A DNA stretch of 64,000 nucleotides from Thermosipho ferrireducens (lineage in GTDB: Bacteria > Thermotogota > Thermotogae > Thermotogales > Fervidobacteriaceae), in the NCBI RefSeq assembly GCF_017358165.1, contig NZ_CP071446.1:186001-250000 (forward strand), written 5' to 3'. The position numbers were made by a program, and so were the translations under genes. The notes under the pieces are model-generated. The model had not been told where the DNA came from and did not search any database. It saw only the letters and a program-made list of their open reading frames with translations. Of the stretch, positions 23,286 through 58,059 are shown piece by piece (position 1 is the first letter of the stretch; every line of letters begins with the position of its first letter).

Positions 23286-24172
23286 AAGATAATTTGGTAA
23301 AAAAAATGTTAAATGGCGATATAAAAGCACTTGCAAAGCTCATAACATACGTCGAAGAAAACCCGGACGATAGATTTTGCGATAACCTGCCTTCAAAAAA
23401 CGCGAAAATTATTGGTTTTACCGGAAGTCCCGGAGCAGGAAAAAGTACAATTGTTAGTGGAATAACTTCAAACTTAAGAAATAAAGGTAAAAAAATAGGA
23501 GTAATAGCTGTAGATCCATCCAGCCCCTTCACAGGTGGGGCTTTTCTTGGTGATAGAATAAGAATGAAGCGCCATTTTCTCGATTCAGATGTTTTCATCA
23601 GAAGCATGGCAAGCCGCGGAAATATTGGCGGATTGAACGAAAGCATTTTCGATGTAATAAAAATTATGGATTCTTTCGGATTCGATTACATACTTATAGA
23701 AACTGTTGGAGCAGGCCAGAGCGAAATAGAAATAGTCTATGCAGCAGACATAGTTGTTTTAGTGCTTTCTCCAGGAAGTGGTGATGAAATTCAACTTATG
23801 AAAGCCGGAATAATGGAAATAGCAGATATCTACGTTATTAATAAAGCAGACCAAGATGGTGCAAATGTACTAAAAACTCAACTTGAAGCTTTACTATCTT
23901 TTTCAAACTCACAAAAACCCATTTATACCACAGTAGCCACCACGGGGATTGGAATAGAAGATGTAACATCTTCCATCATAGAGCTTTTAAAAAATTTCGA
24001 AAAAAGTGGAGAACTTCAAAAAAGAACATTACGCCGAAATAAAAAGCACGTTGAAACAATTATATTAAGAAAGGTACGAGAGACTATAGAATCTCAAAAA
24101 TATGATTTTACAAACACAAGTAGTATAATTAAAAATGTTATAGAGAAATTGTGCAAAGAGTTTGAGAGTTGA
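23282..24172 (+). CDS. meaB: methylmalonyl-CoA mutase G-protein chaperone MeaB
   Basis: A G3E-family GTPase that protects and reloads the mutase with adenosylcobalamin. Walker A is GSPGAGKST, followed by [20 protein letters not shown], the [11 protein letters not shown] loop and the Walker B region ETVGAGQSE. The specificity motif is NKAD. At 296 residues it has the usual length. It starts with TTG and overlaps mcmA2, as expected for partner proteins. It is the last recognisable gene of the methylmalonyl block. Confidence 0.95.
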
Positions 24173-39604: not shown

Positions 39605-40449
39605 TGAGTAAAAAATGGTATAAATTGGTTATAAATCAAATACAGCCAATACATCTGGGAAAGGCTGTTTATGGAGTTTTAGGAGAAACCAGAATCTTTA
39701 TACCAGGTCAGACTGTGTGGGGAGCACTTGCAAAAGCTTATTGTATAAATAAAAAACTACCGTTTGAAAAGAATAAAAATTTATTTGAAGAAATAACCTG
39801 TTTTTATCCAGCTTTTGATAATCAATCTTTTTTAAAACCACGTTTTTCAGGTGGTGAATTTTATCTGGGAGATTTGCCAGAACGGGAGTTTAAACTCTTA
39901 TTTGCGGACACTTTTGTCTCCACAGCTGTGCTACCAGAAACAAAGTCAGCTAAGGATGAGTCGCTACACGAAATAGAGTATATTCTTCCAAGACACAAAA
40001 AGGAACTTGAAAGCACCGAACTTTACAAAAAACTAACACAATTGGGTTATAAAAATAGCAACTTAAAATGGGTTGGTTTAATAAAGTTAGAGGAAAATAT
40101 CAAAAAAGAAATAGAAGGAATGGAAATATATGTAGGTGGAGATGTCAGATATGGATTTGGTTTGATGAAAATAACTAAGATCACAGAGACATATAAAAGC
40201 ATGGAAGAAGATTTCAATATTATTTCTGAAATAAAAAAAGGAAAAATAAATAATGCAGATTTTCCAAGCGAAAATATAACACTATTAAATTTCTTCTGTA
40301 TTGACAATACCGATGTAAAGATTGAAGGTAAAATTGAAATTATTATAGAAAAAGACTTTTATGATAACAACAGACAAAACATCGAAGGTAAAATTGTGCA
40401 TGCAGGCTATTATGCAGTACCTGGTAGTAAAATTTTAAAAAATATCTAA
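39604..40449 (+). CDS. RAMP protein, probable Cmr3/Cas5 equivalent
   Basis: The 281-residue RAMP-superfamily protein opens with KLVINQIQPIHLGKAVYG, then TRIFIPGQTVWGALAKAYC. This is a G-rich RAMP loop reminiscent of Cmr3/Cas5, which caps the crRNA 5' handle. GGDVRYGFGLMKI near residue 190 is the second glycine motif. Since cmr1, 2, 4, 5 and 6 are all accounted for, this gene most probably fills the Cmr3 role. It lacks the usual Cmr3 opening (PLFFRDGRPF-type), so the assignment is by elimination. A terminator follows. Confidence 0.6.
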   Translation: MSKKWYKLVINQIQPIHLGKAVYGVLGETRIFIPGQTVWGALAKAYCINKKLPFEKNKNLFEEITCFYPAFDNQSFLKPRFSGGEFYLGDLPEREFKLLFADTFVSTAVLPETKSAKDESLHEIEYILPRHKKELESTELYKKLTQLGYKNSNLKWVGLIKLEENIKKEIEGMEIYVGGDVRYGFGLMKITKITETYKSMEEDFNIISEIKKGKINNADFPSENITLLNFFCIDNTDVKIEGKIEIIIEKDFYDNNRQNIEGKIVHAGYYAVPGSKILKNI

Positions 40450-40482
40450 ATTTTTTATTTCAAACAAAACAATTCAAAATAA

Positions 40483-40508
40483 AAACGTCCAGCTGCTGGA
40501 CGTTTTTT
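40483..40508 (+). terminator. terminator of the cmr operon; right copy of the flanking hairpin
   Basis: AACGTCCAG and CTGGACGTT form a nine-base-pair stem around CTG, followed by T residues. The stem sequence is the same as that of the tRNA-Asn terminator at 31389-31417. Confidence 0.9.
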
Positions 40509-40564
40509 ACTCATTATAACTCACAGTTTTTGTGATTTGGTTATTTAATTGTTGTTTATAGTAG

Positions 40565-41191
40565 TTAATGTTTATAAGAAATAACTTTTACAGGGCAAAC
40601 ATTTTTACATTCAAAACATAATAAACATTCGTTATTTATAATTCTTCGCTTTTTATTGTTCAGGCTTTTTATTGCATTTGCATTGCATACCTTCTGACAG
40701 AGTCCACAACCTATACATTCACTTTCTTCAATCTCAAGTCCAAACATCGCCGGTTGAGAAACAATTGATAAAATTGCACCGTAAGGGCAAAGAACTTTAT
40801 GCCAGAATTCTTCTTTAAAAAATAACGTGATTATAAAAGCTCCTATCAGGATAAATAGAAGTAAAGGTATCTTTATTTTTAATACTCTTATAGCAATGAG
40901 TAAGCCAATAAAGAACAAAAGGATTATGTAACGAACCACTGGATGTTTCATAAACTTCGGAGTAGAAAATCTTTTTATTCTTAGTTTCTTATAAATCCAT
41001 CCAACTGGTCTAAAAACTGTTTGAATGGGACAAATCCATCCACAATAAAATCTTCCAAAAAACAACGATAAAATTGCCAATCCTCCAAAAATCAATATCC
41101 ATGATTGGAGCTTTCCATTGAAAAATAAAAATAAAAACAGCAAAAATGCCAGGATCTCAGTAACTGTTCTTAAAAACTTTGTTAATTTCAT
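40565..41191 (-). CDS. membrane 4Fe-4S ferredoxin-type protein (NapH/YccM-like)
   Basis: The 208-residue protein has about five membrane helices, the FYCGWICPIQTVF and VLCPYGAILS cysteine motifs, and two C-terminal ferredoxin clusters (CIGCGLCQKVC and CLLCFECKNVCP). This is the 4Fe-4S polyferredoxin membrane family that passes electrons from quinol or ferredoxin to a partner enzyme. No partner oxidoreductase is adjacent, so the pathway is unknown. It faces away from the small gene at 41365. Confidence 0.87.
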   Translation of the reverse strand: MKLTKFLRTVTEILAFLLFLFLFFNGKLQSWILIFGGLAILSLFFGRFYCGWICPIQTVFRPVGWIYKKLRIKRFSTPKFMKHPVVRYIILLFFIGLLIAIRVLKIKIPLLLFILIGAFIITLFFKEEFWHKVLCPYGAILSIVSQPAMFGLEIEESECIGCGLCQKVCNANAIKSLNNKKRRIINNECLLCFECKNVCPVKVISYKH

Positions 41192-41298
41192 ATTCGGTTC
41201 CCCCTTTCCACAAATTTCTGATTTTTTATCCCTGCAAGTTTATCACACTAAAATATTTCTGTCTGTCACATTTATTACTATTCTTTAAAAAGCTCCAA

Positions 41299-41327
41299 TT
41301 GACCAATAAATGTTTTAATGTTATACT
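41299..41327 (+). promoter_or_regulatory. promoter of the small membrane-protein gene
   Basis: TTGACC (41299-41304) and TATACT (41322-41327) are separated by 17 bases, 38 bases before the ATG. Confidence 0.75.
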
Positions 41328-41364
41328 GTGTTTTAAATGAGATTTCAAAAGGGGGTAATAAATT

Positions 41365-41553
41365 ATGTGGGGAATAATAGGTGGTTTTATTGCAGCAATC
41401 TTTTTGGTTGAAGTTCTTGATCTTCCTGAAATGGTTGCTAAAAAATTGCGGGGGAAATTGACTAACAAAGAGTTAGAAGAGAAAGTCAACCAGCTCGAAT
41501 CACGGGTAATAAAATTAGAAAAAATGATGCAAATAGAAAACAAGGAAATTTAG
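41365..41553 (+). CDS. small membrane protein with coiled-coil tail
   Basis: A 62-residue protein with one N-terminal hydrophobic helix (GIIGGFIAAIFLVEVLDL) and a C-terminal heptad-like coil (LEEKVNQLESRVIKLEKMM). I do not recognise a family. It is probably real because a near-consensus promoter and AAAAGGGGG precede it in the expected positions. Size and layout recall small envelope or phage-shock-like proteins, but nothing more can be said. Confidence 0.65.
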   Translation: MWGIIGGFIAAIFLVEVLDLPEMVAKKLRGKLTNKELEEKVNQLESRVIKLEKMMQIENKEI

Positions 41554-41575
41554 AAAGTTTTAGTACAATTATCTC

Positions 41576-42110
41576 CAGCCTCGTTAATTTTAAGATTCCT
41601 CGTCACTTCGTTCCTCGAAATGACACCTCTTTCATGTCATCCTGAGGAGCGTCAGCGACGAAGGATCTTATTTTACTAACACGTGCTAACCTTGCCAACT
41701 TCGTTAAATCAAGATTCCTCACGCTAAACGCTCAGAATGACAGAAAGGAAGAGTCCAACCTCGTTAATCTTGCTAATATTAAGATTCCTCGTCACTTCGT
41801 TCCTCGGAATGACAGGTGTGGGGAAATTCCTCATCACTGCGTTCCTTGGAATGATATTTTCTTTTTTTTGTCATCCTGAGCATAGCGAAGGGGATGTCAT
41901 CCTGAGGAACGGAGTGACGAAGGATCTTATTCCTTATTGTCATTCCGAACGAACGTGAGGAATCCTGTTTTTTACCAACTCTCGCTAACCTCGCTAACCT
42001 CGCCAATCTTGCTAATCTTGCCAACTCTCGCTAATCTTGCTAACCTCGCCAATCTCGCAAGATCCTTCGCACTTCGTGCTCAGGACAGGCCCTGCCATTT
42101 TTACTAATAA
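41576..42110. repeat. composite intergenic repeat cluster R5 (largest)
   Basis: About 535 bases without a real gene. At least seven repeat units in both orientations are present: GATTCCTCGTCACTTCGTTC at 41593 and 41782, GTCATCCTGAGGAGCGTCAG at 41636, GTCATCCTGAG(C/G)... at 41870 and 41896, GTCATTCCGAACGAACGTGA at 41939, and others. A tandem 9-mer block and the CTCAGGACAGGCCCTGCCA module (42080-42098) close the cluster. Minus-strand open frames here (e.g. ARLARLARL) are repeat artefacts. Confidence 0.85.
41981..42053. repeat. 9-bp tandem repeat (CTCGCTAAC type)
   Basis: Eight consecutive 9-mers: CTCGCTAAC, CTCGCTAAC, CTCGCCAAT, CTTGCTAAT, CTTGCCAAC, (T) CTCGCTAAT, CTTGCTAAC, CTCGCCAAT. Variation is confined to transitions at three positions. 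Shorter runs occur in every other R cluster. Confidence 0.88.
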
Positions 42111-42122
42111 TTGTGTTAAAAT
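42092..42122 (+). promoter_or_regulatory. candidate promoter of the glycerate operon, adjoining a repeat module
   Basis: CTGCCA (42092-42097) as a weak -35, then 19 bases to TAAAAT (42117-42122) with TTGTG before it. The sequence from AGGACAGG to TTTAAAT is almost the same as that upstream of the MutL-like gene (46118-46164). Confidence 0.45.
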
Positions 42123-42157
42123 TTAAATGGACTTTTAATAAATCAGGTTATAAACAA

Positions 42158-42180
42158 TCACATGGTAACTAACCATGTGA
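42158..42180 (+). promoter_or_regulatory. candidate operator upstream of gntP
   Basis: A perfect inverted repeat, TCACATGGT and ACCATGTGA around AACTA, lies between the candidate promoter and the gntP start. No T-run follows, so it is more like a repressor site or RNA hairpin than a terminator. Confidence 0.5.
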
Positions 42181-42211
42181 AGCAAAAACATATTGGGGAG
42201 GTGCTGCGGGG

Positions 42212-43549
42212 ATGTGGCTGGTTATTTTGTTACTGTTGTCAGTATTTTTCATTGTTGTTTCTACCGTTAAATGGCGTCTTCATCCATTCCTGTCATTATT
42301 GTTTGCTGCGTTTGCGTTTGGACTTCTTGCAGGCATGAAACCAGTGGATATTATAAATTCGATTAAGCAGGGGTTTGGTGGCACACTTGGAGCAATTGGT
42401 ATTGTGATTGTTGCAGGAACAATCATAGGCACCTTTCTCGAAAAATCTGGAGGGGCATACACCATGGCGGAAAGTGTTCTTAAAATTACAGGCAAAAAGA
42501 ACGTACCACTTGCCATGGGAATTATAGGTTATATTGTATCAATACCTGTTTTTTGTGATTCAGGATTTGTTATATTAAGTCCACTTAATAAGGCTCTTTC
42601 AAAACGTGCAGGGATTTCACTTGCAGCAAGCGCTATAGCTCTTAGCTTAGGATTATACGCAACACATACAATGGTACCTCCTACACCTGGTCCGATTGCC
42701 GCTGCTGGAATCCTTGGAGCAGATCTTGGAGTCGTTATCCTGTTTGGCTTGCTTGTATCCATTCCTGCACTTATTGTTGGATGGCTGTTTGCTGTAAATT
42801 CTGGTAAGAAAATAAAAATAGATCCAGATCCAGAACTATCCGAAGCTGATATAAAAAAGAAAATGGAAGATGCACCTTCTTCCTTCAAAGCTTTTACTCC
42901 TATAGTTCTTCCAATAATTCTTATTCTTTTTAAATCTATTTCTGATCTTCCTGGAAGACCTTTTGGCGACGGCCTTTTCAGATCTATTATAGGCTTTATT
43001 GGACATCCAATAACTGCTCTGCTTATAGGTGTGTTAATCGCCTTTACCCTTCCAAAAAAGCTGAAAAAAGAAATGCTTTCAACAAGCGGTTGGGTTGGTG
43101 AAGGTCTTATTAATTCTGCTATAATAATACTTATAACAGCAGCAGGTGGCGCTTTTGGTAAGGTTCTTCAAAATTCCGGTATAGCACAGGTTATTGGTGA
43201 TACACTTGCGCAGGCAAATCTTGGAATATGGCTTCCTTTTATAATAGCGGCGGGAATAAAAACCGCCCAGGGGTCTTCAACTGTTGCAATAATAACAACA
43301 GCATCGCTTATGGCTCCACTTATGGAACCGCTTGGATTTACAAGCACAGCGATAAAAGCATTGGTAGTTGTAGCAATTGGTGCTGGTTCCATGGTTGTGT
43401 CCCATGCAAATGATAGTTACTTCTGGGTGGTAACTCAATTCTCCAGAATGGACATTAAACTTGGATACAGGTTGCAGACCCTGGGAACCCTTTTTGAAGG
43501 TCTTGCTGCAGCGGTAATTGTGTGGATAATAAGTTTTGCCGTTGTATAA
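42212..43549 (+). CDS. GntP-family permease, probable glycerate transporter
   Basis: The 445-residue protein has about 12-14 membrane helices and GntP features: FGGTLGAIGIVIVAGTIIG, IVSIPVFCDSGFVILSPL, THTMVPPTPGPIAAAGILGA and a C-terminal VVVAIGAGSMVVSHANDSYF. GntP proteins take up gluconate, glycerate or related acids with protons. The glycerate kinase gene 18 bases downstream argues for glycerate. The start ATG follows GGGGAGGTGC. Confidence 0.92.
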   Translation: MWLVILLLLSVFFIVVSTVKWRLHPFLSLLFAAFAFGLLAGMKPVDIINSIKQGFGGTLGAIGIVIVAGTIIGTFLEKSGGAYTMAESVLKITGKKNVPLAMGIIGYIVSIPVFCDSGFVILSPLNKALSKRAGISLAASAIALSLGLYATHTMVPPTPGPIAAAGILGADLGVVILFGLLVSIPALIVGWLFAVNSGKKIKIDPDPELSEADIKKKMEDAPSSFKAFTPIVLPIILILFKSISDLPGRPFGDGLFRSIIGFIGHPITALLIGVLIAFTLPKKLKKEMLSTSGWVGEGLINSAIIILITAAGGAFGKVLQNSGIAQVIGDTLAQANLGIWLPFIIAAGIKTAQGSSTVAIITTASLMAPLMEPLGFTSTAIKALVVVAIGAGSMVVSHANDSYFWVVTQFSRMDIKLGYRLQTLGTLFEGLAAAVIVWIISFAVV

Positions 43550-43567
43550 AATCAGGAGGTTATTTAT

Positions 43568-44824
43568 ATGACAAAATCACAAAAGATGAGGCAGGAAATA
43601 TCAGAAATAATAAAATATTCCATCGAAAAAGTTTTGCCAGATGTAGCGGTAAAAGAAGAATTGAATAATTTACAATTGAACAACGTTTACGTTGTGGCTA
43701 TAGGAAAGGCTTCATGGAGGATGGCAAAAGCCACCGCCGATGTTCTTGGAAAGTGTATCAAAAAAGGTATTGTCATAACAAAATACGGTCATAGTGAGGG
43801 TAATATTGAAAAATTCATTATATATGAAGCTGGCCATCCTTTACCAGATGAAAATACGATAAAAGCAACTGATGAAGTATTAAAAATGGTTTCAAATTTA
43901 AGTGAAAATGATACTGTTTTGTTCCTTGTATCAGGTGGCGGTTCAGCGCTCTTTGAAAAACCAGCTGAAGGAGTAACTCTTGAAAACATAATGAAAATAA
44001 CGGATAAACTCATGAAATCAGGTGCCAATATATACGAACTTAACACTGTACGAAAACATCTCTCTCAGGTAAAAGGCGGAAGATTTGCAGAACATGTAGC
44101 GCCTGCAAAGCTTAAAGTTCTGGTGCTATCTGATGTTCTTGGTGACAGGCTTGACATGATAGCCTCTGGCCCGGCTTATCCAGACTCAACAACTTCTGAG
44201 GACGCACTGTTAATTTTAAAAAAGTATAAGATAAACATAGATGAAAACATAAAACAAGTTATTCTAAGAGAAACACCAAAAAGTGTAAATAATGCAACAC
44301 ATACAATAATAGGAAATGTAGAAAAAGTGTGCCAGGCAGCTGCTTCAAAAGCCATAGAGCTTGGCTATAATCCTATGATATTCACCACAACTTTGCAAGG
44401 TGAGGCAAGAGAAGCAGCAAAATTTATAATGTCAATTGCGAAAGAAGTTATTAAAAATAACAGACCAGTTGGTGTTCCAGCAGCACTAATTTTCGGAGGA
44501 GAAACAACTGTGCAGGTCAGAGGAAATGGTGTTGGTGGAAGAAATCAAGAGCTTGCACTGGCAGCTGCGCTGGACATAGCCGGAATGAAAAATGTCGTTC
44601 TGGCATCGGTTGGAACAGATGGGACAGATGGACCAACAGATGCTGCCGGTGGAATCATTGATGGCGACTCAGTTCAGCGAATGAAAAATTCTGGTGTAAA
44701 TCCTGTAAAATATTTAGAAAATAACGATTCATATAATGCATTAAAATCGTCTGGAGATTTGTTGATTACCGGTCCAACCGGCACAAATGTAAATGATATA
44801 ATTGTGGTATTAATCAGTGATTAG
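43568..44824 (+). CDS. glycerate 2-kinase (GckA/MOFRL family)
   Basis: The 418-residue kinase phosphorylates D-glycerate to 2-phosphoglycerate for entry to glycolysis. Marker motifs are VAIGKASWRMAKA, YEAGHPLPDE, FLVSGGGSALFEKPAEG and NTVRKHLSQVKGGR. The C-terminal MOFRL domain has FGGETTVQVRGNGVGGRNQE and SVGTDGTDGPTDAAGG. It is co-transcribed with the permease; CAGGAGG is its ribosome binding site. A terminator follows. Confidence 0.94.
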   Translation: MTKSQKMRQEISEIIKYSIEKVLPDVAVKEELNNLQLNNVYVVAIGKASWRMAKATADVLGKCIKKGIVITKYGHSEGNIEKFIIYEAGHPLPDENTIKATDEVLKMVSNLSENDTVLFLVSGGGSALFEKPAEGVTLENIMKITDKLMKSGANIYELNTVRKHLSQVKGGRFAEHVAPAKLKVLVLSDVLGDRLDMIASGPAYPDSTTSEDALLILKKYKINIDENIKQVILRETPKSVNNATHTIIGNVEKVCQAAASKAIELGYNPMIFTTTLQGEAREAAKFIMSIAKEVIKNNRPVGVPAALIFGGETTVQVRGNGVGGRNQELALAAALDIAGMKNVVLASVGTDGTDGPTDAAGGIIDGDSVQRMKNSGVNPVKYLENNDSYNALKSSGDLLITGPTGTNVNDIIVVLISD

Positions 44825-44843
44825 AATATTTTCTGTATTATTG

Positions 44844-44869
44844 AAAGAGGGGCATTACGCTCCTCTTTT
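44844..44869 (+). terminator. terminator of the glycerate operon
   Basis: AAAGAGGGGC and GCTCCTCTTT pair (one mismatch) around ATTAC, ending in T residues. Confidence 0.75.
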
Positions 44870-44901
44870 GTGTTTAAAATGTCAGGTGCAGGGAGGAAAT
44901 A

Positions 44902-45693
44902 ATGTCAGATAAAAAACTTCTAAACAGTTTGGTATTTTTTTATATACTGGTATACACAATTTCCTATGTTGCAGTTCCCGCTTTTCACAAATTTTTCAAA
45001 CCAAAAACAATTTCTGGAACACTGCTTTTAAATTCAGTAGTATTGCTTATGATGTTTGCCGTTATATACACAATAATTAAGATAAACAAAAATGATAAAA
45101 CTTTTTTTGCAACGCTTGGAATTAGAAAGAAGAATACGTTTTCAAGTTTTTTATTAGCGGAAGCTTTTTCAATACCAATTCTTTTATCCTGGCTTATTGG
45201 GGTAAAAGTTGCAGGGATAAATGCCATGTTAGTTGCCGCAAAACCTTCCTGGATTAACATGGAAGATGTGTCGTTCCAATCGTTGTTTTTTGCCATAATT
45301 TTATGGACTTTAACAGGAATTATTTCGTTTTCCTTCTGGCAAGCGTTCCCTTATGAACTTATGAATAGTTTTCCATTAAAACTCAAATTAACACTGATCG
45401 TAATTTTGTGGAGTGGCTTGTACAACGCTCCCCTTTTATCTGGCAAGTTTGATTTGTTCGATATTGTATTTTTTGGTTTGCTCTTCACAATAGTTTACCA
45501 TAAAAGAAAAAATAGTATAGGAATACTAATTGCTTACCTTTTAAATGAAAATCCATTGTGGTGGATCATAGCAGCATTGTTTAAACCAAATATTGAAAAT
45601 GTTTTTCTTATATTGCTGATTTTTAGAGCACTTATATCTTTTGTCTCTATAATATTGATGATTAGATTGAAAAAAACTGCTTCCATTATTTAA
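44902..45693 (+). CDS. CPBP-family-like membrane protein, catalytic motifs degenerate
   Basis: The 263-residue protein has about eight membrane helices. The order of its motifs follows the CPBP/CAAX-protease-like family. However, the EExxxR position reads SFWQAFPYELM and the second motif (normally a His near GLxHxP) reads SGLYNAPLL. The usual glutamates and histidine are absent, so it is probably not an active protease. GGGAGGAAATA precedes the ATG. It is separated from the glycerate operon by a terminator. Another polytopic family remains possible. Confidence 0.5.
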   Translation: MSDKKLLNSLVFFYILVYTISYVAVPAFHKFFKPKTISGTLLLNSVVLLMMFAVIYTIIKINKNDKTFFATLGIRKKNTFSSFLLAEAFSIPILLSWLIGVKVAGINAMLVAAKPSWINMEDVSFQSLFFAIILWTLTGIISFSFWQAFPYELMNSFPLKLKLTLIVILWSGLYNAPLLSGKFDLFDIVFFGLLFTIVYHKRKNSIGILIAYLLNENPLWWIIAALFKPNIENVFLILLIFRALISFVSIILMIRLKKTASII

Positions 45694-45699
45694 ACTAAC

Positions 45700-46133
45700 T
45701 TTCGCTAACATCACCAAATTAAGATTCCTCGTCACTACGTTCCTCGGAATGACAAAGAGGTAAGATGTCATACTGAGCGTAGCGGAGGATATTTTTTGCC
45801 AATCTCGCCAACTCTTGCTAACCTCGCTAGCCTCGCTAATTATAAGATTCCTCGTCGCATACGCTCCTCGGAATGACATAGATGGTTGATTTCTCGCTTT
45901 CTTGCTCCTTAGAATGACATTTGCCTTCTTTTGTCATCCTGAGCGCAGCGAAGAATATGTCATCCCGAGGAACGAAGTAACGAGGGGGATGTCATCCTGA
46001 GGAGCGAAAGCGACGAAGGGGATGTCATCCCGAGGAATGTAATGACGAGGGATCTTATTTTTCTAACTCTCGCTAACTCTCGCCACCTTTGCAAGTTCTT
46101 TCATCGTTTCACTCCTCAGGACAGGTCCTGCCA
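45700..46133. repeat. composite intergenic repeat cluster R6
   Basis: A 500-base gap with no real gene. Units in both orientations are at 45723, 45766, 45848, 45932, 45960, 45989 and 46023. There is a 9-mer run CTCGCCAAC/CTTGCTAAC/CTCGCTAGC near 45802-45840, and the CTCAGGACAGGTCCTGCCA module at 46115-46133 abuts a candidate promoter. Confidence 0.82.
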
Positions 46134-46158
46134 TTTTTACTAATATTTGTGATAAAAT
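46128..46158 (+). promoter_or_regulatory. candidate promoter of the MutL-like gene, adjoining a repeat module
   Basis: CTGCCA (46128-46133), 19 bases, then TAAAAT (46153-46158) preceded by TTTGTGA. Geometry and sequence match the gntP promoter candidate. Confidence 0.45.
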
Positions 46159-46195
46159 TTAAATAGTGATTTTTATTAAAAGATGGAGGGATTTT

Positions 46196-47563
46196 GTGAA
46201 AGTAGATCTGATATTCGCTGAAATTGGTTCAACCACGACAGTTGTTACCGCTTTTTCTGGAATCGGAGATAATCCAGAGATACTTGCTCAAAGCGAGCAC
46301 TGGACAACTGTAGACCAGGGAGATGTAACAATAGGAATAGAAAATGCTATAAAAAGCTTGAAAAAAAAGCTTGGTGTTGAAAATCTTGATTGGGAAAAAT
46401 TTGCTGCAACAAGCAGTGCAGCTGGTGGTTTAAAAATGACTGTGCACGGACTTGTTTATGATATGACTGTTCGCGCTGCAAGAGAAGCCGCTCTTGGCGC
46501 TGGTGCTGTTATAAAGTATGTAACAGCGGGAAAGATGGATGAGTTTCATCTTGAAAAAATCAAAAAGATCAACCCAAAATTAATTCTTTTAGCTGGAGGA
46601 GTTGATTATGGAGAAAAAGACACAGTCATTCATAACGCAAAGCTTCTTGCTTCACTTCCTCTCGATATTCCAATAATATACGCTGGAAATGTAGCAGCCG
46701 CCGAACACGTTGAATATATTTTAAACAGCGCGGGAAAAAAGGTTTTTATTACAGAAAATGTGTATCCCAAAATAGATGAGCTAAATGTGGAACCAACAAG
46801 AAACATTGTTAAAAATGTTTTTGCAGAGCATATAACACGCGCCCCTGGAATGGAAAAAATTTATGAAATTGTTGATTACAATCTTTTACCCACCCCAGGA
46901 GCCGTTATGAAAACCACAGAACTTCTTAACAAAATGTTTGGTGATGTTGTAACAATAGATATTGGAGGAGCCACAACAGATGTTGATTCTGTAACTGAAG
47001 GCAGTAATGAAATTCAAGAAATAATGATTTCTCCTGAACCTGTTGCTAAACGAACAGTTGAAGGAGATCTTGGATTGTTTGTAAACGCTCATAATGTTAT
47101 TGATCTAATTGGAGAGGCTAATCTAAAAAAAGAGTTCGAAGATTACGATAACCTTGTAAACAGAATTTCACCTTACCCGAAAACAGAAAGAGATGAATAC
47201 TTTATTTCAAAACTTGCATTATACTGCTTCCAGCAAGGTCTCAGAAGACACGTTGGAAAGAAAAAACATCTTTATACTCCTTTCGGAAGAAAATTAGTAG
47301 CTGAAGGTAAAGACCTAACTGCTGTAAAATATTTGTTTGGAACAGGAGGTTTTCTCAGTCGCTCAAAATATGCCAAACAAATAATGAATACTATCAACAA
47401 TTTATCCAGAATGCACCCTATGGAATTGTTGCCTCAATATAAAGTAGAAATCTTTAGAGATAAATATTATATATTCGCTGGAATAGGCGTTATAGCTTCT
47501 GAAATCGATTCAGAAACTGCAATTAAACTTTTGAAAATGGATATAGAAAAAATAGGAGGATAG
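46196..47563 (+). CDS. MutL/GlmL-family ATPase-like protein (B12-mutase reactivase type)
   Basis: A 455-residue ASKHA-fold protein of the GlmL/MutL family, members of which sit beside glutamate mutase or ornithine aminomutase. Markers are FAEIGSTTTVVTAF (phosphate-1), LILLAGGVDYGEKD, TIDIGGATTDVDSV (phosphate-2) and FGTGGFLSRSKYA. GTG 46196 follows GGAGGGA. No glutamate mutase or aminomutase gene lies nearby, so its partner is elsewhere or it serves another enzyme. The window's only B12 enzyme is methylmalonyl-CoA mutase, which already has MeaB. Confidence 0.85.
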   Translation: MKVDLIFAEIGSTTTVVTAFSGIGDNPEILAQSEHWTTVDQGDVTIGIENAIKSLKKKLGVENLDWEKFAATSSAAGGLKMTVHGLVYDMTVRAAREAALGAGAVIKYVTAGKMDEFHLEKIKKINPKLILLAGGVDYGEKDTVIHNAKLLASLPLDIPIIYAGNVAAAEHVEYILNSAGKKVFITENVYPKIDELNVEPTRNIVKNVFAEHITRAPGMEKIYEIVDYNLLPTPGAVMKTTELLNKMFGDVVTIDIGGATTDVDSVTEGSNEIQEIMISPEPVAKRTVEGDLGLFVNAHNVIDLIGEANLKKEFEDYDNLVNRISPYPKTERDEYFISKLALYCFQQGLRRHVGKKKHLYTPFGRKLVAEGKDLTAVKYLFGTGGFLSRSKYAKQIMNTINNLSRMHPMELLPQYKVEIFRDKYYIFAGIGVIASEIDSETAIKLLKMDIEKIGG

Positions 47564-47568
47564 ACATT

Positions 47569-48159
47569 ATGGCATACGAAAATGAGAAAGTTTTAGTAGT
47601 TCCAACAGATGATGTAATCAAACTTTGTAACGGAAAAATTGGACTTGTTGAGGTAGAAGAGGTAGAAATTTTAAAATTGATAAAAGAAGCGGGTTTTTTT
47701 ATTGACAGAGAAAAAGCAGAATTTGATGAAACAATAAGACAGGTTATACCTTACATTTTACTCAAAGAGAACAATAAATATCTCTTATTCAAACGAACAA
47801 GCGCTCAAGGTGAAAAAAGGCTTCACGGTAAAATTACTATAGGTGTAGGAGGACACATAAATACAGATGACTCTTTAAATCCCATAGATGCATTCAAAAA
47901 AGGAATGCAGCGAGAGATAGCAGAAGAAGTCAACGTAAAAGTCTTAAACATGAATTATATAGGAGTTATAAATATAACAGATAACGCTGTGAGCAGAGTT
48001 CACGTTGGAGTGTGCTACGAGGCAGAAATAGAATATTATGGACTTGTTGAGAAAGATAAATTTATTGAAATCTTTTCAGAAGCTCCGGAAATTTATAACA
48101 AGGAGATGGAAGGATGGAGCAAAGCGGTAGTAAAACACTTAGGGCATATGCAAAAATAA
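47569..48159 (+). CDS. Nudix hydrolase family protein
   Basis: The 196-residue protein has a Nudix domain from about residue 60. YLLFKRTSAQGEKRLHGK leads into GVGGHINTDD and the box core MQREIAEEV with its metal-binding glutamates. The N-terminal 60 residues are a separate short extension. The substrate cannot be predicted. It begins five bases after the MutL-like gene, and ispE starts inside its last 46 bases. Confidence 0.85.
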   Translation: MAYENEKVLVVPTDDVIKLCNGKIGLVEVEEVEILKLIKEAGFFIDREKAEFDETIRQVIPYILLKENNKYLLFKRTSAQGEKRLHGKITIGVGGHINTDDSLNPIDAFKKGMQREIAEEVNVKVLNMNYIGVINITDNAVSRVHVGVCYEAEIEYYGLVEKDKFIEIFSEAPEIYNKEMEGWSKAVVKHLGHMQK

Positions 48160-55653: not shown

Positions 55654-55883
55654 GGCACTAATAAAGTTTTTATTGTACAACCTGTATGTGGCATATATTT
55701 TTCTTTTTACAAAGCTATGTATTGATATTACGAATTTTATAGAAATTCATATAAAAATATACAAATTTTATATAATTCCATGTAAAATTAGATAAAATTA
55801 GATAAAATTAGATAAAATTACATAAATTCACATGAATTTACGTATTTCAAGCTTATTTTTATTCAATTTTTGAAACAGAGCCC
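55654..55883 (+). pseudogene. 3' fragment of the tandem insertion sequence
   Basis: It matches the last part of the transposase gene of the adjacent copies (ALIKFLLYNLYVAYIFLFTK and onward) and the right end with AATTTTTGAAACAGAGCCC. No start codon or catalytic region remains. The right end is separated from copy 1 by AATTCTCT (55884-55891). An extra TAAAATTAGA direct repetition occurs around 55785-55815. Confidence 0.88.
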
Positions 55884-55932
55884 AATTCTCTGGGTCTGTT
55901 TCAAAAATAGGAAGGAAAAGGTATAGAAAAAA

Positions 55933-55962
55933 AGCAAGGGAGATGTTATAATCTCCCTTGCT
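55933..55962 (+). promoter_or_regulatory. hairpin with embedded -10 directly before the transposase start (copy 1)
   Basis: AGCAAGGGAGAT and ATCTCCCTTGCT form a perfect 12-base-pair stem ending on the base before the ATG. TATAAT (55947-55952) overlaps the loop. A transcript started from it would have almost no leader, while a read-through transcript would fold and hide GGGAG. Copy 2 has the same at 56997-57026. Confidence 0.7.
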
Positions 55963-56868
55963 ATGAGAAGAAGAAACATAAAGAAGATATTCAAACTTAT
56001 CCAAAAATTCTACAAAAATATTTTACCACAACTTCCCCAAAAATCTACCAATAGGGGGAGGCCTAGGAAATATTCAGATGTATTAATACTTTCATTAGCA
56101 GTTCTTAAAGAACTGTTGGGACTTTCATTCAGAGAGACATTAGAAATAGGTACAATGTACTTTAACAAAGTTCCATCACTCAGGGACTTTCATTACAGGG
56201 TTCTTCAGTTAGAAGAGATTATAAAACATCTTATAAACTTCATACACGACACACTCCAGTGTGAGATAGAGAGTATTATAGTAGACGGTACAGGAATAGG
56301 GTTTAAGAAACATACTACCTTGAACTGGATGAGAGGCACATATGTAAGACAGATAAAGAACCACGTTAGATGTGAAGTAGTGTTAACAAAAGGAAAATAC
56401 AAACTTTTTCAGTATGTGGAAGTGGGAAAAGCTTATTCAAGTGAAATAAAACTTCTAAAAAAACTATTGAAAAAGATAGAACTCAAGGGAAAGAAATTCA
56501 TAGCAGACAAGTTGTACGATGTTAAATGGTTGAGGGAGTATCTGAAAAAAAGAGGAATAAAAGAGGTAATAAAAATAAGAAAAAGAGCAATAGGCAGGAA
56601 AGAAGTAGATTATGAAGAATACAAAGAAAGGAACGAAATAGAAGGACTATTTGGAAACATAAAAACAAAGCTTGGGGGATATGTATACGCCTACAGAGAG
56701 GACATGGCAAGGATACAGGCACTAATAAAGTTTTTATTGTACAACCTGTATGTGGCATATATTTTTCTTTTTACAAAGCTATGTATTGATATTACAAATT
56801 TTATAGAAATTCATATAAAAATATACAAATTTTATATAATTCCATGTAAAATTAGAAAAAACGCATAA
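55963..56868 (+). CDS. transposase, IS4/IS5-like DDE type (copy 1)
   Basis: A 301-residue transposase with an N-terminal basic DNA-binding part (about 1-50). The first Asp is in IVDGTGIGF, the second Asp in FIADKLYDV, and the catalytic Glu in ERNEIEGLFGNIKTKLGG. It lacks an internal frameshift and appears complete. It differs from copy 2 only near the C-terminus (TKLCIDITNFIEIHI versus TQLWNDITNFIENHI and the last residues). The IS group cannot be fixed without a search. Confidence 0.9.
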   Translation: MRRRNIKKIFKLIQKFYKNILPQLPQKSTNRGRPRKYSDVLILSLAVLKELLGLSFRETLEIGTMYFNKVPSLRDFHYRVLQLEEIIKHLINFIHDTLQCEIESIIVDGTGIGFKKHTTLNWMRGTYVRQIKNHVRCEVVLTKGKYKLFQYVEVGKAYSSEIKLLKKLLKKIELKGKKFIADKLYDVKWLREYLKKRGIKEVIKIRKRAIGRKEVDYEEYKERNEIEGLFGNIKTKLGGYVYAYREDMARIQALIKFLLYNLYVAYIFLFTKLCIDITNFIEIHIKIYKFYIIPCKIRKNA

Positions 56869-56956
56869 ATTCACATGAAATTCATAAAAAAATTGTATAT
56901 TTCAAGTTCATTTTTCTTATTCTTATACGATTTTTGAAACAGGGCCCCAATTCTCT

Positions 56957-58023
56957 GGGTCTGTTTCAAAAATAGGAAGGAAAGGTATAGAAAAAAAGCA
57001 AGGGAGATGTTATAATCTCCCTTGCTATGAGAAGAAGAAACATAAAGAAGATATTCAAACTTATCCAAAAATTCTACAAAAATATTTTACCACAACTTCC
57101 CCAAAAATCTACCAATAGGGGGAGGCCTAGGAAATATTCAGATGTATTAATACTTTCATTAGCAGTTCTTAAAGAACTGTTGGGACTTTCATTCAGAGAG
57201 ACATTAGAAATAGGTACAATGTACTTTAACAAAGTTCCATCACTCAGGGACTTTCATTACAGGGTTCTTCAATTAGAAGAGATTATAAAACATCTTATAA
57301 ACTTCATACACGACACACTCCAGTGTGAGATAGAGAGTATTATAGTAGACGGTACAGGAATAGGGTTTAAGAAACATACTACCTTGAACTGGATGAGAGG
57401 CACATATGTAAGACAGATAAAGAACCACGTTAGATGTGAAGTAGTGTTAACAAAAGGAAAATACAAACTTTTTCAGTATGTGGAAGTGGGAAAAGCTTAT
57501 TCAAGTGAAATAAAACTTCTAAAAAAACTATTGAAAAAGATAGAACTCAAGGGAAAGAAATTCATAGCAGACAAGTTGTACGATGTTAAATGGTTGAGGG
57601 AGTATCTGAAAAAAAGAGGAATAAAAGAGGTAATAAAAATAAGAAAAAGAGCAATAGGCAGGAAAGAAGTAGATTATGAAGAATACAAAGAAAGGAACGA
57701 AATAGAAGGACTATTTGGAAACATAAAAACAAAGCTTGGGGGATATGTATACGCCTACAGAGAGGACATGGCAAGGATACAGGCACTAATAAAGTTTTTA
57801 TTGTACAACCTGTATGTGGCATATATTTTTCTTTTTACACAGTTGTGGAATGATATTACAAATTTCATAGAAAATCATATAAAAATATACAAATTTTATA
57901 TAATTCCATGTAAAATTAGATAAAATTAGATAAAATTACATAAATTCACATGAAATTCATAAAAAAATTGTATATTTCAAGTTCATTTTTCTTATTCTTA
58001 TACGATTTTTGAAACAGGGCCCC
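56957..58023 (+). mobile_element. insertion sequence copy 2 (DDE family)
   Basis: About 1067 bases with the same ends as copy 1 and in the same orientation. AATTCTCT lies before it (56949-56956) and after it (58024-58031). The last base of the right octamer is the first base of the tRNA-Gln -35 element. The coding part is nearly identical to copy 1 apart from the 3' end. Confidence 0.88.
57027..57923 (+). CDS. transposase, IS4/IS5-like DDE type (copy 2)
   Basis: A 298-residue, nearly identical sister of the transposase at 55963. All three catalytic acidic residues are present (VDGTGIGF, IADKLYD, NEIEGLFGN). The difference is confined to the C-terminal 25 residues, where it reads TQLWNDITNFIENH and stops at KIR. 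Start context and hairpin are the same as in copy 1. It is probably functional. Confidence 0.9.
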   Translation: MRRRNIKKIFKLIQKFYKNILPQLPQKSTNRGRPRKYSDVLILSLAVLKELLGLSFRETLEIGTMYFNKVPSLRDFHYRVLQLEEIIKHLINFIHDTLQCEIESIIVDGTGIGFKKHTTLNWMRGTYVRQIKNHVRCEVVLTKGKYKLFQYVEVGKAYSSEIKLLKKLLKKIELKGKKFIADKLYDVKWLREYLKKRGIKEVIKIRKRAIGRKEVDYEEYKERNEIEGLFGNIKTKLGGYVYAYREDMARIQALIKFLLYNLYVAYIFLFTQLWNDITNFIENHIKIYKFYIIPCKIR

Positions 58024-58030
58024 AATTCTC

Positions 58031-58059
58031 TTGATTTTTCTATTTAGTTGTGATAAAAT
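58031..58059 (+). promoter_or_regulatory. promoter of tRNA-Gln
   Basis: TTGATT (58031-58036), 17 bases, then TAAAAT (58054-58059) with TTGTGA before it. It starts at the last base of the IS-flanking octamer. Confidence 0.7.

What the first reader, a model, noticed from the sequence alone, without database searches (positions are those of the whole stretch)
42079..46164. Repeat module and promoter core duplicated upstream of two unrelated genes
Seen: the gntP promoter region (42079-42128) and the MutL-like promoter region (46115-46164) are almost the same over about 48 bases. They run from CTCAGGACAGG through CTGCCATTTTTACTAATA to TTGTG(A/T)TAAAATTTAAAT. The left part belongs to the dispersed repeat family. 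Inference: the repeat may carry, or insert next to, a working promoter, which would rewire expression when it moves.
Basis: partly seen in the sequence, partly recalled or inferred. Interest (0 to 1): 0.5.

Follow-up and report, generated by a model that had tools for sequence, protein, structure and literature searches.

The report
Borrowed promoter beside a repeat array
In this heat-loving bacterium a short stretch of DNA holding one gene's own start signal, together with the end of a neighbouring repeat, appears to have been copied in front of an unrelated transporter gene; the repeat itself does not seem to carry the start signal, although repeat arrays often sit right beside such signals.

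Summary
Window 42079-42128 and 46115-46164 match at 47 of 50 bases, with 7/32 and 9/32 just outside. The repeat part is dispersed (41 matches listed). The promoter part is not: the 32-base core, up to 3 mismatches, occurs twice in this genome and in none of 19 relatives.

Arrays do often lie beside extended -10 promoters: 24 of 107 array flanks have one pointing away within 80 bases, 4 inward. At pheS, murJ and an MBL-fold gene the -10 resembles that of orthologs without the array.

Most likely mutL's own promoter plus the adjoining repeat end was copied in front of gntP by recombination starting in the repeat. Six of 8 sister-genus mutL orthologs have TGnTAAAAT; 1 of 10 gntP orthologs does, none of 4 in the sister genus that has gntP. 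Chance likeness is unlikely: 29 of 31 unconstrained positions match, next best of 15,576 pairs 21. Direction is only moderately supported, mechanism is inferred, transcription was not tested.

The parts
42079..42128 (+). Block copy upstream of gntP: end of repeat unit plus promoter core
   Evidence: 47/50 identical to 46115-46164; core at only two places in the genome
46115..46164 (+). Block copy upstream of the GlmL-like (mutL) gene; inferred source
   Evidence: similar extended -10 in mutL orthologs of the two sister genera
42114..42122 (+). Extended -10 TGTTAAAAT of gntP (predicted)
   Evidence: sequence; no transcription data
46150..46158 (+). Extended -10 TGATAAAAT of mutL (predicted)
   Evidence: sequence; no transcription data
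42057..42095 (+). Terminal repeat unit GCAAGATCC..AGGACAGGCCCTGC
   Evidence: 41 matches listed in the genome; its fold is not clearly better than shuffles (z -1.2)
46091..46131 (+). Terminal repeat unit, other stem subtype (TTTCATCGTTTCACTC)
   Evidence: fold z +0.45
41577..42110 (+). Repeat array upstream of gntP (mosaic of several unit types); limits approximate
   Evidence: long stretches match arrays at 1.749, 1.741 and 0.639 Mb better than the mutL array
45697..46145 (+). Repeat array upstream of mutL; synteny break at its right edge; limits approximate
42158..42180 (.). Palindrome TCACATGGTAACTAACCATGTGA in the gntP leader, only match in the genome up to 3 mismatches; possible operator, or a terminator-like hairpin on the minus strand
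42212..43549 (+). gntP, gluconate:H+ symporter family permease
   Evidence: TIGR00791 above cut-off, PF02447
43568..44824 (+). glycerate 2-kinase-like gene (DUF4147 + MOFRL), next to gntP also in two relatives
   Evidence: below the NCBIfam equivalog cut-offs
44902..45693 (+). unidentified, membrane-like protein gene (by eye) between gntP pair and the mutL array
   Evidence: no Pfam or NCBIfam match at E <= 0.001
   Evidence: NF040744 above cut-off, PF13941

Best explanation
The 50-base block is a copied promoter, not a promoter-bearing transposable repeat. (1) Shown by sequence: a repeat family expanded in this lineage fills intergenic regions, and its arrays often run right up to extended -10 elements. 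(2) Inferred with moderate support: the promoter core in the block is the native mutL promoter, with a repeat array abutting it from upstream. (3) Inferred: a recombination event that began in the shared repeat end (gene conversion or template switching between two same-direction arrays, the blocks lying 4,036 bases apart) copied the last bases of the repeat plus about 30 bases of mutL promoter in front of gntP, where it stopped just after the -10. The gntP-glycerate kinase pair thereby gained a mutL-type promoter while keeping a leader with its own palindrome. (4) Not shown: that either promoter is active, or that gntP expression changed.
For: Common origin: 29/31 unconstrained positions, next best of 15,576 pairs 21/31; the 32-mer exists only twice, none in 19 relatives. 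Upstream of the shared unit end the two copies are no more alike than others (9 of 40 bases without gaps, rank 756 of 780 pairs of 40 copies), so the likeness is a sharp block. The two whole arrays are not unusually alike (rank 206 of 528 array pairs), so it is a local copy. Direction: of 8 mutL orthologs in the two sister genera 6 have TGnTAAAAT 26-30 bases before the match start and the other two have TGnTAnAAT there; of 10 gntP orthologs 1 has TGnTAAAAT, none of 4 in the sister genus that has gntP. The mutL operon downstream and the MBL-fold gene cluster on the other side keep the order of relatives, while gntP lies elsewhere in three genomes of that sister genus, beside a FolP-like gene. 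Arrays beside native promoters: 24 against 4 of 107 flanks; pheS, murJ and MBL-fold -10s resemble those of relatives without the array.
Against: The mutL -10 lies 46 bases before the start here, 26-30 in the sister genera (one of the 8 also has a second element at -44), so it is not in exactly the ancestral place. Alignment is modest: with the mutL core as query, four orthologs of one sister genus rank 1-4 of 103 background regions, the four of the other 9-20, nine mutL orthologs of two further genera 15-102, and one gntP ortholog (L069) ranks 7. With the gntP core as query the sister-genus mutL orthologs rank 1, 1, 4, 9, 19, 32, 45 and 45, and two gntP orthologs rank 2 (L069) and 5 (L066), so the gntP copy does not clearly prefer mutL orthologs. 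The background held some mutL and gntP regions itself. Two of the 4 sister-genus gntP orthologs have TGnTATAAT. Extended -10s are common here, so part of the likeness may be convergent. No general excess of likeness between neighbouring copies was found (permutation 678/10,000 with the pair, 2,109/10,000 without), so gene conversion as a habit is not shown. No other genome of the same genus was available.
Confidence: 0.55

Rival explanations
1. Copying in the other direction, or from a third lost source: gntP came with repeat plus promoter and mutL received it.
For: The mutL -10 is displaced by 16-20 bases from its place in orthologs; the gntP core aligns about as well to two gntP orthologs as to mutL orthologs; both loci have a repeat at the junction and the region between mutL and its former neighbour is rearranged.
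Against: Nine of ten gntP orthologs lack TGnTAAAAT, 6 of 8 sister-genus mutL orthologs have it.
Confidence: 0.23
2. A mobile promoter unit: half repeat plus promoter moves as one element.
For: The unit is nearly the same at both places with sharp edges.
Against: Only two copies, 4 kb apart on the same strand, among 41 listed matches to the repeat; none in 19 relatives. Inverted ends and target duplications were not searched for systematically; none was seen by eye.
Confidence: 0.08
3. Independent repeat insertions next to two promoters that look alike because of promoter constraint or a shared regulator site.
For: Extended -10s are common; a 1-mismatch match to the right part stands before another gene and a clpX-like gene of a relative shares the core.
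Against: The 18 bases between repeat end and -10 and their spacing also match, with no other exact copy in the genome; 29/31 positions against a next best of 21/31.
Confidence: 0.07
4. Tandem duplication of the region around mutL's promoter followed by insertion of the gntP cluster between the copies.
For: Same orientation, short distance.
Against: Likeness stops at both edges (7/32 and 9/32); the gntP array resembles distant arrays more than the mutL array.
Confidence: 0.05

Closest known systems
Putative mobile promoters / promoter propagation in prokaryotes (Matus-Garcia, Nijveen, van Passel 2012; seen only as reference entries, content recalled)
   Same: Nearly identical promoter sequence upstream of unrelated genes in one genome
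   Different: Here only two copies, and the copy includes the end of a dispersed repeat that may have guided it
Horizontal regulatory transfer / switched intergenic regions (Oren 2014, reference entry; described in passages of PMC5890482)
   Same: A gene's promoter region replaced by a non-homologous or highly divergent one
   Different: The inferred donor is inside the same genome (which the passage allows) and the tract is about 50 bases
Correia elements (NEMIS) of Neisseria (section 5, part 1, of PMC2229807; start of the abstract of PMC2649163)
   Same: Small dispersed intergenic repeat beside promoters
   Different: Correia elements can make promoters at their own ends; this repeat does not in the copies listed

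Membership tests
Promoter duplication upstream of non-homologous genes (putative mobile promoter; definition recalled) | Nearly identical upstream region in front of at least two unrelated genes of one genome | tested here: met
   47/50; the genes belong to GntP permease and GlmL families
Promoter duplication upstream of non-homologous genes (putative mobile promoter; definition recalled) | The shared region is an active promoter | not testable with these tools
   only sequence: extended -10 present in both
Promoter-carrying MITE such as the Correia element | Promoter formed by the element itself in many copies | tested here: not met
   2 of 41 listed matches reach the -10; 4 extended -10 lookalikes inside 55 arrays, about 9 expected at sample density
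Promoter-carrying MITE such as the Correia element | Terminal inverted repeats with TA target duplication | not tested
   empty sites not compared
Switched intergenic region (horizontal regulatory transfer) | Orthologous gene has a non-homologous or highly divergent promoter region in relatives | tested here: met
   Against 10 gntP orthologs: TGnTAAAAT in 1 and TGnTATAAT in 4, all 47-52 bases before the match start instead of 98; one other (L074) has a plain TAAAAT at -100 besides a TATAAT at -62. All relatives are of other genera, so divergence by time is not excluded
Known structured RNA | Match to an Rfam family | tested here: not met
   none at E <= 1 in window 40000-48000

The most novel reading that the evidence does not exclude
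Repeat arrays in this lineage serve as a trading ground for promoters: because arrays stand directly against extended -10 elements at many genes, recombination between arrays can carry short native promoters from gene to gene, and the -35 regions of many genes have been replaced by repeat sequence, with extended -10s selected in compensation (as at the MBL-fold gene, where the TG is seen only in the species whose -35 is replaced).
Probability: 0.15. Interest if true: 0.65.

Novelty: new member of a known kind. Interest (0 to 1): 0.38.

Why it matters
If right, it is a clean, small example of a gene gaining another gene's promoter inside one genome, with a plausible physical reason (shared repeat ends beside promoters). 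The wider pattern, arrays standing directly against native extended -10 promoters of housekeeping genes such as pheS and murJ, is testable and would help explain how a dense repeat family is tolerated.

Tried and rejected
Rejected or not supported: repeat carries the promoter; whole-array duplication; chance likeness; structured RNA of Rfam; habitual gene conversion between neighbouring copies (not shown). A hairpin or terminator role of the terminal unit gets no support from folding: z -1.21 (gntP copy), +0.45 (mutL copy), -1.13 (typed consensus); a different unit at 41585-41628 gave z -2.60 and was not followed up. The first genome-contig scan found no relative; the second returned 80 loci, of which I used only titles and contig lengths. 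A literature search for six repeat strings gave 0 papers in that library. In one search loci of minus-strand matches were shown unturned; one search repeated the thirty of L001-L030 turned where needed. My working name CPBP for the gene at 44902 found no support.
Full report
Observation. Window 42079-42128 and 46115-46164 agree at 47 of 50 bases; agreement falls to 7 of 32 before and 9 of 32 after. The window is a stretch of a single-contig genome of 1,982,543 bases. Its family includes Thermosipho and Fervidobacterium: contigs of unnamed relatives G007, G013 and G006 have the lengths of contigs titled Thermosipho sp. (two) and Fervidobacterium sp., and two other contig lengths fit T. melanesiensis and F. 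nodosum (recalled). No other genome of its own genus appeared among the relatives searched.

The repeat part. Searching 76 bases around the gntP copy lists 41 matches in the genome (57 first-look candidates, 40 scored), 36 of them at E <= 1e-3, while 16 of 19 family relatives have none and three have one each. Of those three, two match a 26-base stretch of the hairpin and one a promoter before a gene that I recognise by eye as clpX. The family is therefore expanded in this lineage. The unit reads GCAAGATCCTTCGCAC-TTC-GTGCTCAGGACAGGCCTTGC, commonly followed by 9-base steps such as CTCGCTAAC. The terminal unit does not fold clearly better than shuffles and Rfam has no match in window 40000-48000.

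The promoter part. Only two of the 41 matches continue into the -10. The 32-base pattern up to TAAAAT, with up to 3 mismatches, is present twice here and in none of 19 relatives, two of which are incomplete genomes. Extended -10 elements as such are ordinary in this genome. To ask whether two such promoters could look this alike by constraint, 177 TGnTAnAAT sites in the own sequence held at the time were compared at 31 other positions: the pair scores 29, the next best of 15,576 pairs 21, mean 9.0, sd 2.7. The sample is about 14% of the genome (277,630 bases), holds the loci listed, and part of it was fetched because it resembled the -10. Among 40 copies of the unit (the 14-base match was dropped) the pair ranks 13 of 780 in the 20 bases after the anchor, because other pairs share the intact repeat there, and 756 of 780 in the 40 bases before it, compared without gaps.

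Where the promoter came from. mutL was found in 17 of 18 family relatives and in none of 12 genomes of other families of the order. In the two sister genera 6 of 8 mutL orthologs have TGnTAAAAT 26-30 bases before the match start (one of them has a second one at -44), and the other two have TGATACAAT and TGGTAGAAT at the same place; of nine orthologs from two other genera none has TGnTAnAAT. Of ten gntP orthologs one has TGnTAAAAT and four others TGnTATAAT, all 47-52 bases before the match start instead of 98; the four of the sister genus that has gntP have no TGnTAAAAT, two of them TGnTATAAT; one ortholog from another family (L074) has a plain TAAAAT at -100. I left out five further rows (two paralogs at 43-44% identity, two fragments in G006, and the second piece of the G010 gene). 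By local alignment the mutL core ranks 1, 3, 4 and 4 of 103 background regions for the four orthologs of one sister genus, 9-20 for the four of the other, and 7 to 93 for the ten gntP orthologs. With the gntP core as query, sister-genus mutL orthologs rank 1, 1, 4, 9, 19, 32, 45, 45 and gntP orthologs 2 to 103. The background was taken from the relatives' loci and holds some mutL and gntP regions. This favours mutL as the source without proving it, the more so because the own mutL -10 is displaced by 16-20 bases.

Synteny. In the five sister-genus loci fetched (L112-L116), mutL stands back to back with an MBL-fold gene (family). Here that gene is at 148,879-149,547 on the minus strand, with its former neighbours kept on one side, while mutL keeps its operon on the other. 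About 82.6 kb now lie between them in the ancestral orientation, and at both junctions a repeat unit stands next to the promoter. In three genomes of the sister genus gntP sits beside a FolP-like gene (recognised by eye); in G017 and G023 it sits beside the glycerate kinase gene, as here.

Arrays and promoters in general. In the own sequence held then, 55 arrays gave 107 usable flanks: 24 had an extended -10 within 80 bases pointing away and 4 pointing inward (Fisher p 6e-5). Of the 24, two are the pair under study and one (at 23,372) is itself repeat sequence, GTTGGTAAAATAAG. Because 51 of 55 arrays lie mainly outside genes, some outward bias is expected from gene layout; the close contact is the informative part: in nine of the sixteen sites listed within 60 bases the distance is 2-22 bases, eight without the repeat-derived one. 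Array limits come from a crude motif marking, so distances are approximate. Inside the arrays there are 4 extended -10 lookalikes in 14,042 bases, about 9 expected at sample density; three read TGGTAAAAT within repeat sequence, so a few copies might by chance hold a weak one on the other strand. Genes behind an array have an extended -10 in 14 of 24 cases (2 on the other strand) against 23 of 75 without an array (5 on the other strand) (Fisher p 0.028), a suggestive result from a non-random sample. Three further genes were compared with orthologs, pheS and murJ chosen from ten array-side promoters printed, and the MBL-fold gene for its synteny. At pheS the element TGTTATAAT is the same in all 8 sister-genus relatives shown; at murJ this genome has TGCTAAAAT and the 8 relatives TGCTATAAT or TGGTATAAT; at the MBL-fold gene this genome and the 5 relatives shown have TATAAT. 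I saw no array in the 110-120 bases shown for the relatives. At the MBL-fold gene the relatives read AGAGTATAAT and this genome CATGGTATAAT, so a TG is present where the upstream half was replaced.

Mechanism. The shared end of the repeat lies at the left edge of the block; the right edge is just after the -10. The two arrays as wholes are not special to each other (rank 206 of 528), and 5' of the unit end the copies are of different stem subtypes. The simplest history is a short copying event starting in the repeat; this is inference. A general tendency of neighbouring copies to be alike was looked for and not found.

Literature. Searches covered Thermosipho and intergenic repeats, six repeat strings (0 papers), bacterial repeats and promoters, Correia repeats, mobile promoters, regulatory rewiring and Thermotoga promoters. 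I saw the outline and section 5, part 1, of PMC2229807 and passages of PMC11111574, PMC9208149 and PMC5890482. The primary papers on promoter propagation and regulatory rewiring were seen only as reference entries; the rest are search listings.

Noticed in passing
window 1 to about 45700 (genome 149.7-231.7 kb): About 82.6 kb separate the MBL-fold gene and mutL, which are back-to-back neighbours in the five sister-genus loci fetched; both ends carry repeat units.
   Followed up: partly
window 42158-42180: Palindrome TCACATGGTAACTAACCATGTGA (9-base arms) in the gntP leader, only match in the genome up to 3 mismatches; possible regulator site or minus-strand terminator.
   Followed up: partly
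window 55654-58031: Two nearly identical transposase genes (one matched to DDE_Tnp_1) in tandem with a 1064-base period.
   Followed up: no
genome 149.5-149.7 kb (L008, L206): At the MBL-fold gene the upstream half of the promoter, with the relatives' TTGCA-type -35, is replaced by repeat sequence, and a TG extended -10 is present that the five relatives shown lack.
   Followed up: partly
genome 708.7-709.0 kb and 1632.0-1632.3 kb: Arrays abut extended -10 elements of pheS and murJ that resemble those of orthologs.
   Followed up: partly
genome 23,372; 290.8, 1300.3 and 1322.0 kb arrays: Some repeat copies hold the string TGGTAAAAT, an extended -10 lookalike, inside repeat sequence.
   Followed up: partly
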